Assembly: GCA_016288295.1 (NCBI GenBank)
Contig: JAEEYV010000004.1
Coordinates: forward strand, 1-43,985
Direction: 5' to 3'
Length of the DNA stretch: 43,985 nucleotides
Origin: Alphaproteobacteria bacterium
GTDB taxonomy: Bacteria; Pseudomonadota; Alphaproteobacteria; RF32; CAG-239
Below the pieces are notes generated by a model. It did no database searches, was not told the DNA's origin, and saw nothing but the letters and a program-made list of their open reading frames with translations. The translations under genes and the position numbers were made by a program. Positions 3,437-7,465 of this stretch are shown one piece after another; the stretch's first letter is position 1, and each line of letters begins with the position of its first letter.

Positions 3437-3512
<76 letters not shown>

Positions 3513-3605: not shown

Positions 3606-6059
3606 TTACGTTCGACAACTGCGGTGCTTTGCGCAAGCTGTTCGTAGGTTCGTTTTTCTTACTGTCGATTCTGTATGTTTTTTTTTCGTATTGTCTTGGT
3701 CTTTTGAAAGCTGAGACTTTAAATCATTTATGCGAAGAGCAATTCTTTGCTCCTTTTGAGCATCTTCAACATACACATTTAAGTTCCTTATATCAAAATC
3801 CTTCACAAAAATATCAGGATGTTTGTGATATAATTTTTCGATTAATCCCTTTGCTCCGTCAAAAGCATATTCTGGCATAATTGTAGCTTTTTCTGTTGAT
3901 GCACCTTCTGGTCCATTCATTAAATTAATTCCAAGCCCCATATTATGTGCTCTTTGAATCATATCGCGAACAATTCCTCCTCCTCCAATAGCTATCATTT
4001 CTCCTTTATTTTCTGCTACAACATTAAGTACTGTATCAGGCAAATCAAACCATCTTTTAGCGATTTTGCCGTTTAATGATAAAACAACTGCGTGAGTGAT
4101 TGTATTTTCTTCGATACTCGCCCTATCTTGGTAAGCCGCTTCCTCTGTAAGAGTGCCAATAACTGCTATTTGAGATGCTTCTTTAAGATTTCTACAGTGA
4201 GCAACTTCATGTAATTGCTTCTCAACACCATGATTTGTACCGCCTGTCATAATATATGCTTTATTAGGGTCAACCACATTAACCAATACTTGCATTGCGG
4301 TGCGTATTTCATCTTGTTGTTCTTTTGAAATATTCGGCCAAGCTTTTACTGAAGCACCAGTAACTAAAATTGGCATTTTATCCGCCATAACTTTAGCGAC
4401 CTTGTCTGGGTCTGTTTCCGCACCTACTCTGGAAATTTCCGAATTTAAAAATTCTTGTAGTCTCTTTATTTCTGCATTTTTGCGTTGTTGCACACTGCCA
4501 TTATAGTGTGTTTCACCATTTGCAGTACTATATTCAGGCTTGAATATGTCTTCAAAAGTTTTTCCCGAATCGAGTAGCTCTTGGATTCTGGCATTCTTTT
4601 CATCAAAACGTTGGCTTTTAGAAATTATCAGCTGCTCTTCGAACTCGTTCATCTCTATAAGTTCTTCTTTTGACACTCCTGCGGCATGCGCAAGAATAAC
4701 ATCCTGTTCAGGATTTGTAGAATAAATGCCCATACCATCAGAGCCTAGAACAAATCTTATACCATTATCAATATATCTTTTCAGAGGAATATCTTTTATA
4801 CTATCAATATTATTTAATGATAGGTTTGATGCCATATTAAACTCTATAATAGCACCTGTTTCTTTACATAGCGACAAACACTCTTCATCAACTCCATATA
4901 AACCATGACCTATTCTTATTGCAGGACACTTTAATGTATTACCACTTTCGGTTTCTGCTTCTTTAGTTGCTTCTTTTACGATTTTAAGTACATCTTTCAC
5001 GTTATCTTGAAACAAGGGATTTTCGCCTGCATGAACACGCATGACGAAACTTGGATCATTTAATGCAGCCCATTTTGCAATTTCTTTCAACTCCTCGCCA
5101 AATTCCATCGTAGAATTTGTTTCGTGTCCCATAAAATCTATACCAACGATATATGGACTTCGCGCAACTGATTTTATACGATCGACTTCATCTTGATTCC
5201 ATTCTTTATCCGAATGTCGCCACATAGCAGCTAAAAAACGTATTTTACATCCGGTTTCTTGTTCAATCTGCGGTAATTCTTTATGTATTGTTTTAAGGAC
5301 ATCCATATCTCCTATAACGGAAGATAGTGAAAATTCTGCATATTTAATACCGACGCCTGCATGTATTTCTGCTACTTTTTTTAACAAATCAGGAAATAAT
5401 TCCTTATTTTTGGTAAAAGGTCCCCTCATAACATAGATATCTTCCATCTTGTTGAAAGTTTCTTGTTGTTCTAAAGGAATACGCATTGAAGAAGCATATT
5501 TTTGTAAATCACTTTCTGTTAAATCAGCAAGTTTTATGTTTCTACCATTATATTTTGAAATATCAATACCACTTTTAGATAAAATGTCAGAAGAAATGGA
5601 TAAATCGTGTTTCCTTCCTACCTCTATTAAATCCTCAGGAGACAAGCAACCTGCAAAATGTGTATGTAAATCCGTAGAATGTTTCAATTCACTAATATCA
5701 TCACGTGAAAATATCTGTGGTTCAATACTTTTTCTAGCAAGCATGCGCATTTCAAAGGCGGTCAGGTGCTTTTGAGGACGTTCTGTATCTAAAACAATCT
5801 TTTGTTTTTTTTCATCTTTTTTAAAGTGCGCAAAACATTCATCCTTAAGATATAAACTATATCCGCCATCTTCTGGCTGTATTAAGATGATCCTTTTTAA
5901 ATTTGATATAACATTGTTGCCCGATTGTTTATCAGTTCCCAAATATTCCATTATTGGTACGATAGAATCTTTATCCTCGACAATTTGTAAAGATATTTCT
6001 TTTGAATAATCCAAGTTAATCTTCAATAAATGAGGATAATCAACAAAATAGTCTTCCAT
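3606..6059 (-). CDS. Adenosine-deaminase-like amidohydrolase fused to a C-terminal SLOG/LSDAT-like (TRPM-type) Rossmannoid domain, 817 aa
   Basis: ADA motifs STDLHTHFAG, RVHAGE, RIGHG, VLGSDG; then ILVTGASVKAWPN...AYIMTGGTNHGVEKQLHEVA...IAVIGTLTEEA...MIAIGGGGIVRDM...LMNGPEGAST resembling TRPM-type SLOG. Confidence 0.75.
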   Translation of the reverse strand: MEDYFVDYPHLLKINLDYSKEISLQIVEDKDSIVPIMEYLGTDKQSGNNVISNLKRIILIQPEDGGYSLYLKDECFAHFKKDEKKQKIVLDTERPQKHLTAFEMRMLARKSIEPQIFSRDDISELKHSTDLHTHFAGCLSPEDLIEVGRKHDLSISSDILSKSGIDISKYNGRNIKLADLTESDLQKYASSMRIPLEQQETFNKMEDIYVMRGPFTKNKELFPDLLKKVAEIHAGVGIKYAEFSLSSVIGDMDVLKTIHKELPQIEQETGCKIRFLAAMWRHSDKEWNQDEVDRIKSVARSPYIVGIDFMGHETNSTMEFGEELKEIAKWAALNDPSFVMRVHAGENPLFQDNVKDVLKIVKEATKEAETESGNTLKCPAIRIGHGLYGVDEECLSLCKETGAIIEFNMASNLSLNNIDSIKDIPLKRYIDNGIRFVLGSDGMGIYSTNPEQDVILAHAAGVSKEELIEMNEFEEQLIISKSQRFDEKNARIQELLDSGKTFEDIFKPEYSTANGETHYNGSVQQRKNAEIKRLQEFLNSEISRVGAETDPDKVAKVMADKMPILVTGASVKAWPNISKEQQDEIRTAMQVLVNVVDPNKAYIMTGGTNHGVEKQLHEVAHCRNLKEASQIAVIGTLTEEAAYQDRASIEENTITHAVVLSLNGKIAKRWFDLPDTVLNVVAENKGEMIAIGGGGIVRDMIQRAHNMGLGINLMNGPEGASTEKATIMPEYAFDGAKGLIEKLYHKHPDIFVKDFDIRNLNVYVEDAQKEQRIALRINDLKSQLSKDQDNTKKKHTESTVRKTNLRTACAKHRSCRT

Positions 6060-6093: not shown

Positions 6094-6123
6094 AAAGAGC
6101 CGGATAAGCCAATCCGGCTCTTT
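6094..6123 (-). terminator. intrinsic terminator between PGDYG-like gene and ADA-SLOG gene
   Basis: Perfect 12-bp stem AAAGAGCCGGAT-aagcca-ATCCGGCTCTTT; minus strand continues TTTT. Confidence 0.8.
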
Positions 6124-6130
6124 GGGGTTC

Positions 6131-6637
6131 CTATCTAGTAAATTGTTGAGGGTTTATTCTCAGAGGAGTTCCCTGTTTATCGCATTGAGCATAAGTTTCA
6201 TTAAACTCTTTGCGTTGAATGCCATAAATATCTCCGCTGTCTCTTCCGCTGATATTTAAAACTCCGCCAGCTTTGATGTCCATTTCCTCTCCCCATGGAG
6301 CTGTAAATTGGACATCTTCTTTCAAAAATAAAAACTCCTGAGCTCCGCCTTTAGGACGATATTGTTTAGGATTAGCTGGATCTATCTCATATCTTTTTGC
6401 GAAAGTTTTAGCATCAATGATATATTGCTCTCCATTTGGATTAGTTGCAACCATATCTCCTTTTTCTTTTACAACGTTTTTTGTTTCCTGATGACCATCA
6501 GCCATTTTGGTAACAATTTCTTCCCCAACAATGCCTTCTCTTGCGGTTATGCGAGCTGTTTTTGCATATAATTGAGGTTTTTGTCCTGCATCTAATTTTT
6601 CTTGGACATAAGCCTTTATATCATCAACTTTTACCAT
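6131..6637 (-). CDS. PGDYG-domain-like small protein (168 aa)
   Basis: KEKGDMVATNPNGEQYIIDAKTFAKRYE motif; RBS (aaggaga) upstream. Confidence 0.55.
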   Translation of the reverse strand: MVKVDDIKAYVQEKLDAGQKPQLYAKTARITAREGIVGEEIVTKMADGHQETKNVVKEKGDMVATNPNGEQYIIDAKTFAKRYEIDPANPKQYRPKGGAQEFLFLKEDVQFTAPWGEEMDIKAGGVLNISGRDSGDIYGIQRKEFNETYAQCDKQGTPLRINPQQFTR

Positions 6638-6724: not shown

Positions 6725-6868
6725 CAATAAAAATGCTCTGATATTTCAACGCCTAACATAGTACTCGTAAACCCTTAAAATATTGTGAATAGTCGTTCCT
6801 TATTTTTCAATATAGGAATAAGCCGTAAAAAAATAAATCCTTGGATAAATGTTTTGAAAGGATTTAAT

Positions 6869-7465
6869 ATGATTTATGGCTATATACGCACTTCAACAGA
6901 TAAACAACACAATGAAAATCAGCATTTTGAAATAGAACAGTTTGCTAAAAATAATAAGTTTGTCGTTGATAAATGGATTGAGGAAACTGTTTCATCTAAA
7001 AATGATTTAGATAAACGAAAATTAGGAAAATTATTAAGAAAAGTTAGGCAAGGCGATATTATAATTGCCTGCGAGATTAGTAGATTGGGAAGAAATCTTT
7101 TGCAAATAATGTCTATACTTCACCACTGCATGAACACAGGTTGTCAGGTATGGACAATCAAGGATAATTACAAATTGGGAAATGATATTCAGTCGAAGGT
7201 TTTAGCTTTTGCTTTTGGGTTATCGGCGGAAATAGAAAGAAATTTGATTTCACAAAGAACTAAGCAAAGCTTAGACAGGTTAAAGGCTGAGGGCAAGCAC
7301 ATTGGCAGAGTTAAAGGCTCAAAAAACAAGATTACAAAATTATCTGGAAAGAAAGATTTGATATTAGAATTATTATCTCAAAACGTTAAAAAAGGGCAAA
7401 TTGCCAGAATATTAAAAGTTAATTATACAACTCTCTACAGGTTTATGAAAGAGATGTTTGAATAA
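6869..7465 (+). CDS. serine recombinase / resolvase-invertase family protein
   Basis: MIYGYIRTSTDKQHNENQ, EISRLGRNLLQIMSIL, FAFGLSAEIERNLISQRTKQSLDRLKAEGKHIGR and a C-terminal HTH; ATG at 6869 with aaagga RBS preferred over the 6785 start. Confidence 0.9.
   Translation: MIYGYIRTSTDKQHNENQHFEIEQFAKNNKFVVDKWIEETVSSKNDLDKRKLGKLLRKVRQGDIIIACEISRLGRNLLQIMSILHHCMNTGCQVWTIKDNYKLGNDIQSKVLAFAFGLSAEIERNLISQRTKQSLDRLKAEGKHIGRVKGSKNKITKLSGKKDLILELLSQNVKKGQIARILKVNYTTLYRFMKEMFE

What the first reader, a model, noticed from the sequence alone, without database searches (positions are those of the whole stretch)
3606..6059. Adenosine-deaminase-like enzyme fused to a TRPM-type SLOG (LSDAT-like) domain
Seen: one ORF carries a full set of ADA-type metal motifs (HTH, HAGE, IGHG, SDG) followed by a Rossmannoid domain (VTGASVKAW.., MTGGTNHGVEKQLHEVA, IAVIGT, AIGGGGIVRDM, NGPEGAST). 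Knowledge: that pattern resembles the N-terminal SLOG/LSDAT region of TRPM channels, where it can bind ADP-ribose; prokaryotic SLOG domains are proposed nucleotide sensors in biological conflict systems, and ADA-family enzymes act in defence (RADAR RdrB). Inference: the fusion could sense or modify an adenine-nucleotide signal such as ADP-ribose, an NAD metabolite or a nucleotide alarmone. The usual ADA DD pair is DG here, suggesting an unusual substrate.
Basis: partly seen in the sequence, partly recalled or inferred. Interest (0 to 1): 0.8.

Follow-up and report, generated by a model that had tools for sequence, protein, structure and literature searches.

The report
Deaminase fused to TRPM-like sensor domain
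A gut bacterium carries a small mobile gene pair whose main protein joins an adenosine-deaminase-type enzyme to a nucleotide-binding domain related to the one that senses ADP-ribose in animal TRPM ion channels; it looks like an undescribed nucleotide-destroying defence or toxin system, but no function has been tested.

Summary
The 817-aa ORF (3606-6059, minus strand) is N-domain + ADA-fold deaminase (Pfam E 2e-19; Foldseek top 50 all ADA fold) + C-terminal Rossmannoid domain. The SLOG/LSDAT call holds at moderate strength: the family profile against the whole PDB finds only TRPM2/TRPM8 (14 of 14, best E 0.016), and both Pfam LSDAT models match 6 of 8 members, always below the curated cut-off. 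The layout is a real family: 8 full-length members in Alphaproteobacteria, Clostridia and Saccharibacteria, plus a second Clostridia subfamily. Metal and catalytic residues are invariant; DD->DG is invariant in 17/17 and ADA Asp19 is Ala/Asn. Both contacts are also changed in Cad1, which deaminates ATP.

A sister species has the empty site, another the partner alone, and a third the recombinase-PGDYG pair with a Zeta-toxin-like cargo. In the closest relative the pair adjoins SoFic and PD-T4-2/NsnA-like genes. Best reading: mobile, ligand-gated adenine-nucleotide deaminase effector of conflict/defence. ADP-ribose sensing is unproven.

The parts
3437..3512 (+). tRNA-Ala (GGC) immediately beside the inserted cassette
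   Evidence: ARAGORN; intact and next to rlmN with only 48 bp between in sister species G012 (empty site)
3606..6059 (-). 817-aa fusion: N-domain + ADA-fold deaminase + SLOG/LSDAT-like domain
5715..6059 (-). N-terminal alpha/beta domain (residues about 1-115), no Pfam match, shared by both subfamilies
   Evidence: alignment, model
4635..5678 (-). ADA-fold deaminase domain (residues about 128-475); H132, H134, H343, E346, H385, D441 invariant, G442 in place of mouse ADA D296, A136 in place of D19
   Evidence: Pfam A_deaminase E 2e-19, Foldseek top 50 all ADA fold, residue counts
3810..4394 (-). SLOG/LSDAT-like Rossmannoid domain (residues about 556-750), motif TGGTNHGVE (605-613) with invariant E613
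6094..6123 (-). 12-bp-stem terminator-like hairpin between the two genes
   Evidence: 6 terminator-like sites found against 2.7 expected in the region
6131..6637 (-). PGDYG-type 168-aa all-beta partner protein
   Evidence: Pfam PGDYG E 1.8e-4, below its cut-off; beside the fusion gene in L004, L006, L007 and fused in L005; model pLDDT 84
6785..7465 (+). Mpi-family serine recombinase, divergent from the partner (true start probably ATG at 6869)
   Evidence: NCBIfam PRK13413.1 E 2.3e-89, 298.5 bits against cut-off 272, match starts at residue 29

Best explanation
A mobile two-gene conflict (defence or toxin-type) cassette. The large protein is an adenine-nucleotide deaminase of ADA fold whose activity is set by a ligand, probably a nucleotide, bound at its C-terminal SLOG/LSDAT-like domain; when switched on it converts an adenine nucleotide (ATP-like rather than free adenosine) to its inosine form and stops growth, as RdrB and Cad1 do. 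The small PGDYG-type beta-protein is its regulator (antitoxin, or a trigger that resembles a phage protein). Shown here: three-part architecture, invariant catalytic set, changed substrate-contact positions, linked partner, mobility, defence-gene neighbours in the closest relative. Inferred: substrate, ligand, gating, growth arrest, partner's role.
For: Architecture conserved in 8 full-length members of three bacterial groups and in a second subfamily. Metal ligands and catalytic Glu invariant 17/17, so probably an active enzyme; mouse-ADA positions D19 and D296 are A/N and G in all. TaqCad1 also has both changed (G and N), deaminates ATP, and has at most weak activity on adenosine (PMC12669630); RdrB deaminates ATP/dATP, not adenosine or AMP (PMC9994260). 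The C-terminal profile hits only TRPM2/TRPM8 in the PDB; SLOG domains are known ligand switches, e.g. for 3'cADPR in ThsA (PMC11204291). Partner adjacent or fused in 5 of 8 subfamily I loci, on either side. Mobility: empty site in G012, partner alone in G002; same recombinase-PGDYG pair with a Zeta-toxin-like cargo in G045 and without cargo in G530; 2 of 153 genomes of the order. In L004 the pair is divergent from SoFic (E 5e-110) and an NsnA/PD-T4-2_A-like gene (E 4e-62).
Against: No phage, plasmid or IMG/VR copy found and no known defence gene in the window itself. No ligand-making partner (TIR, cyclase, CRISPR type III) recognised next to any copy. Subfamily II keeps the same neighbours in related Clostridia (L038-L040), which looks like a resident gene. 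Three of eight subfamily I copies have no PGDYG neighbour. The deep tree follows the phyla, so long-range transfer is not shown. A well-scoring ADA in G588 has N at both contact positions, and restoring both Asp in Cad1 did not rescue adenosine activity, so these positions alone do not fix the substrate.
Confidence: 0.45

Rival explanations
1. A resident metabolic enzyme: a nucleotide or modified-nucleotide deaminase with an allosteric nucleotide-sensing SLOG domain, with no role in conflict; the mobile copies are simply carried along.
For: Subfamily II is found in 10 of 396 genomes of one Clostridia order, with conserved neighbours in some; ADA-fold enzymes include AMP and N6-methyl-AMP deaminases, which are among the Foldseek matches. 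Own genome has no other A_deaminase match, so it could be its only ADA.
Against: Absent from the 12 other genomes of the genus and from 151 of 153 of the order; no purine-salvage neighbours seen; host genomes G588 and G589 carry a separate ADA as well; recombinase, tRNA site, defence neighbours.
Confidence: 0.25
2. A classical toxin-antitoxin pair: the PGDYG protein neutralises a constitutively active nucleotide deaminase toxin.
For: Small gene upstream of large gene with a terminator-like hairpin between, a dosage arrangement common in such pairs; the same PGDYG slot is coupled to a Zeta-toxin-like protein in G045 and lies near AAA_33/zeta-like kinases in G498/G499; orphan PGDYG retained in G002 and G530.
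Against: Fusion-gene copies without PGDYG exist (G024, L008, G727, all of subfamily II); PGDYG is fused in cis in Saccharibacteria; PGDYG relatives occur in phages with no toxin recognised nearby.
Confidence: 0.25
3. Bifunctional nucleotide destroyer: the ADA domain deaminates and the SLOG domain, which keeps a Glu where LOG enzymes have their catalytic Glu, cleaves the base from the sugar, so it degrades a signal nucleotide or drains a pool.
For: E613 invariant 17/17, spaced from the second Gly exactly as Gly116-Glu122 in CgLOG (PMC4979012), whereas TRPM2 has Met there.
Against: The LOG motif proper (PGGxGTxxE) is not present, the other LOG catalytic residue (Arg99) has no obvious counterpart, and subfamily II lacks the second Gly.
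Confidence: 0.15
4. An ordinary adenosine deaminase with a decorative C-terminal domain.
For: Full set of ADA metal and catalytic residues.
Against: Far below every ADA equivalog cut-off (70 against 217 bits for TIGR01430); both adenosine-contacting aspartates replaced in all members; long extra domains conserved across phyla.
Confidence: 0.06

Closest known systems
Cad1 (CARF-ADA, type III CRISPR effector, ATP to ITP)
   Same: ADA-fold domain joined to a Rossmannoid nucleotide-sensor domain; same metal set; ADA Asp19 and Asp296 both replaced; PADLOC CARF_ADA is the best defence-library match over the ADA part (E 4e-12; 2e-18 for L007); Foldseek matches to Cad1 chains
   Different: Sensor is C-terminal and TRPM/LSDAT-like, not an N-terminal CARF; no CRISPR locus seen nearby; extra N-domain; PGDYG partner
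RADAR RdrB
   Same: ADA-fold effector; proposed nucleotide deamination
   Different: No RdrA AAA+ ATPase adjacent, no RdrB profile match, own sensor domain in cis
Thoeris ThsA (SIR2-SLOG)
   Same: Design: enzyme plus SLOG ligand switch
   Different: Enzyme is ADA-type, not SIR2; no TIR gene recognised; SLOG is LSDAT-like rather than ThsA-like
TRPM2 MHR1/2 (LSDAT_euk)
   Same: TGGTnxGV motif region; only PDB family matched by the profile
   Different: Sub-threshold score; TRPM2 has Met at the invariant E613; ADPR-contact residues F268/R275 of srTRPM2 (PMC11479946) could not be placed
PGDYG family (PF14083) in phages and plasmids
   Same: Partner matches it (E 1.8e-4, and 1e-5 in L004) and matches phage proteins by sequence and fold
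   Different: Coupled to a deaminase fusion; function of PF14083 unknown

Membership tests
Adenosine deaminase superfamily (PF00962) | Profile score over curated cut-off | tested here: met
   70.3 bits against 27
Adenosine deaminase superfamily (PF00962) | Metal/catalytic set HxH, H, E, H, D | tested here: met
   invariant 17/17
True adenosine deaminase (TIGR01430) | Equivalog cut-off | tested here: not met
   70.3 against 216.55 bits
True adenosine deaminase (TIGR01430) | Adenosine-contacting Asp19 and Asp296 (mouse ADA numbering) | tested here: not met
   A/N and G in all members; but not universal in bacterial ADA-like proteins either
True adenosine deaminase (TIGR01430) | Deaminates free adenosine | not testable with these tools
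   needs enzyme assay
SLOG, LSDAT clade (PF18139/PF18171) | Pfam curated cut-off | tested here: not met
   17.8 and 17.7 bits against 25.7 and 25.4 for the isolated domain
SLOG, LSDAT clade (PF18139/PF18171) | Sequence relationship to TRPM MHR1/2 | tested here: inconclusive
   PDB profile search: 14 of 14 hits TRPM, best E 0.016; 6/8 members match both LSDAT models, best E 3.3e-4; subfamily II alone does not match
SLOG, LSDAT clade (PF18139/PF18171) | Alternating beta/alpha Rossmannoid core with Gly-rich loop after a strand | tested here: met
   model: E562-568, H579-595, E601-605 (TGG), H611-626, E633-636, E656-658, H670-683, E687-693 (GGG), H695-706, E710-719
SLOG, LSDAT clade (PF18139/PF18171) | Fold match of the isolated domain to TRPM2 MHR1/2 | not tested
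Cad1 | N-terminal CARF domain and type III CRISPR locus | tested here: not met
   PADLOC match confined to profile 261-556 of 605; no cas genes among the neighbours
RADAR | rdrA AAA+ ATPase gene next to rdrB | tested here: not met
   cassette neighbours are tRNA-Ala, parE, the partner, the recombinase and rlmN; no RdrB match
Thoeris | SIR2-SLOG ThsA with TIR ThsB | tested here: not met
   ADA in place of SIR2; no TIR match among the gene products scanned around the fusion gene
PGDYG (PF14083) | Profile score over cut-off | tested here: not met
   22.3 (window) and 26.2 (L004) against 27 bits; phage and plasmid relatives found by tblastn, best E 3e-17 and 7e-17, the plasmid one annotated PGDYG

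The most novel reading that the evidence does not exclude
A previously undescribed immune system in which a bacterial relative of the TRPM channel's ADP-ribose receptor directly gates an ATP-type deaminase, with a phage-like PGDYG protein as trigger or antitoxin, carried on interchangeable recombinase-PGDYG-effector cassettes.
Probability: 0.25. Interest if true: 0.85.

Novelty: new variant of a known kind. Interest (0 to 1): 0.6.

Why it matters
It would add a third, independently wired ADA-type nucleotide-deamination effector after RADAR and Cad1. It would also give a soluble bacterial protein in which a TRPM-type sensor controls an easily assayed enzyme, making it possible to ask what ligand this domain evolved to detect. 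The PGDYG link gives a functional lead for a protein family that is found in large phages and has no known function.

Tried and rejected
Viral-contig scans with the fusion protein, its profile and the partner gave no relatives; phages and plasmids hold no fusion gene, and the single plasmid hit is an ordinary ADA stretch. A search for LSDAT_prok in 249 genomes of the phylum found none and its controls did not ring, so it says nothing and gave no LSDAT sequences for profile-profile comparison. The partner model has no solved-structure match (best E 0.29). PGDYG neighbours in phages show no consistent theme: an NAD-salvage and NADAR cluster in XacN1 only, so an NAD link was not pursued. Long direct repeats marking attachment sites were sought and none was convincing. 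Deep horizontal transfer was tested by tree and is not supported: groups follow phyla. The idea that DG alone proves a new substrate was dropped after a well-scoring ADA with N at both positions turned up. The founding SLOG paper (Burroughs et al. 2015) is not held, so an earlier mention of this architecture there cannot be excluded. No paper in the open library mentions PGDYG and none was found to describe such a fusion.

Full report
WHAT IS THERE. The ORF at 3606-6059 (minus strand) encodes 817 aa. Residues 129-471 match Pfam A_deaminase (E 2e-19). An AlphaFold model from six sequences (mean pLDDT 81) matches ADA-fold enzymes throughout the top 50 of the PDB: Plasmodium and mammalian ADA, AMP and N6-methyl-AMP deaminases, and Cad1. 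A further N-terminal alpha/beta domain of about 115 residues has no Pfam match. The C-terminal region models as an alternating beta/alpha domain whose Gly-rich loops (TGGT, GGGG) follow strands.

IS THE C-TERMINUS SLOG/LSDAT? Moderately supported. Both Pfam LSDAT models match 6 of 8 members of the isolated domain (best E 3.3e-4 and 6.3e-4) but stay under their curated cut-offs. The family profile run against all PDB sequences returns 14 sequences at E<=10, all of them TRPM2 or TRPM8, aligned on TGGTNxGV (best E 0.016). An equivalent profile from subfamily II returns no TRPM, yet is homologous to this domain by profile comparison (probability 95, E 3.5e-8, 176 columns). E613, invariant in 17/17 sequences, is spaced from the second glycine like the catalytic Glu122 of CgLOG (PMC4979012), where TRPM2 has Met. 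So the domain may have kept chemistry that TRPM lost; this is inference.

THE FAMILY. Full-length relatives: L004 (Alphaproteobacteria, red deer, 73%), L002/G024 (same bacterial family, 44%), L005 (Saccharibacteria), L006, L007 and L036 (Clostridia), L008 (Alphaproteobacteria). A second subfamily in one Clostridia order keeps the same three parts: 33-36% identity in the ADA part and 15-19% in the C-terminus. HxH, H343, E346, H385 and D441 are invariant in all 17. The position of mouse-ADA D296 is Gly in all, and D19 is Ala (subfamily I) or Asn (II). TaqCad1 has both positions changed too; it deaminates ATP and has at most weak activity on adenosine, but restoring both Asp did not rescue adenosine activity (PMC12669630). 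Hence the substitutions suggest, and do not prove, a nucleotide substrate. A second ADA in a Clostridia host has N at both positions.

THE PARTNER. The gene at 6131-6637, upstream on the same strand, encodes a PGDYG-like protein (Pfam E 1.8e-4 here, 1e-5 in L004, both below the cut-off). A relative stands directly upstream of the fusion gene in L004 and L007, downstream in L006, and is fused to its N-terminus in L005, where a further copy precedes it. It is missing at L002, L008, L036 and subfamily II. Its model is all-beta (pLDDT 84) with no PDB match but with matches to phage and Orpheovirus proteins; sequence relatives lie in large Vibrio, Yersinia and Xanthomonas phages and on plasmids. 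A terminator-like hairpin (6123-6094) separates the two genes.

MOBILITY. The cassette sits between tRNA-Ala (3437-3512) and rlmN. Sister species G012 (RlmN 98% identical) has parE, tRNA-Ala, 48 bp, rlmN with nothing inserted; G002 has only the PGDYG gene at that site (97% identical protein). A divergent Mpi-family serine recombinase (6785-7465) completes the window cassette. In the same bacterial family, G530 has recombinase-PGDYG without cargo, and G045 has recombinase-PGDYG followed by an 890-aa protein with a Zeta-toxin-like P-loop (E 2.4e-4, just below the cut-off), in the same order and orientation. The fusion gene occurs in 2 of 153 genomes of the order and PGDYG in 21 of 134. Five of eight subfamily I loci have a tRNA gene within 1.4 kb. 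A tree of 17 proteins follows the phyla, so transfer between phyla is not shown; mobility is shown at the level of related species.

CONTEXT. Around the window cassette the genes that can be named are housekeeping (parE, rlmN, dnaA, recR and others). In the closest relative, L004, the PGDYG-fusion pair is divergent from a SoFic gene (PADLOC E 5e-110) and an NsnA/PD-T4-2_A-like gene (E 4e-62). No locus showed recognisable purine-salvage neighbours. The own genome has no other A_deaminase match; two host genomes have a separate ADA.

HOW IT MOST LIKELY WORKS. A ligand binds the SLOG-like domain, the ADA domain is activated, an adenine nucleotide is deaminated and growth stops; the PGDYG protein restrains or triggers this. 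Architecture, active-site conservation, linkage and mobility are shown; ligand, substrate, toxicity and the partner's role are inferred. The general principle, an enzyme with a Rossmannoid nucleotide sensor, is established for Cad1 and for SIR2-SLOG ThsA.

NOVELTY. It works like Cad1 or RADAR in design but fails membership of both (no CARF, no RdrA). No description was found in the open library, but the founding SLOG paper could not be read. Filed as a new variant of a known kind.

Noticed in passing
L090:4336-8445: Recombinase-PGDYG cassette of the same layout carrying an 890-aa protein with a Zeta-toxin-like P-loop instead of the deaminase fusion: the PGDYG slot may pair with interchangeable effectors.
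   Followed up: partly
L091:6142-7956, L093, L096: PGDYG genes lie beside small AAA_33/zeta-like P-loop kinases in several relatives.
   Followed up: partly
L092, L094, L095, L097, L099, L100: A PGDYG gene sits at one conserved chromosomal site, next to a 155-aa protein resembling MraZ and the genes after it, in several genomes of the family, so one PGDYG branch looks resident rather than mobile.
   Followed up: no
L051:2317-8424: In Xanthomonas phage XacN1 the PGDYG gene lies in a cluster with NADAR (DUF1768), NMN adenylyltransferase-Nudix and nicotinate phosphoribosyltransferase genes.
   Followed up: no
L005:6265-6873: A second, free-standing PGDYG-like protein directly upstream of the PGDYG-deaminase-SLOG fusion in Saccharibacteria.
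   Followed up: partly
L037-L046: Clostridia subfamily II of the fusion, with stable neighbours in some genomes, and a C-terminal domain not recognised by the LSDAT models.
   Followed up: partly
window:433-1206: 257-aa protein next to parE with no Pfam, NCBIfam or PADLOC match.
   Followed up: no
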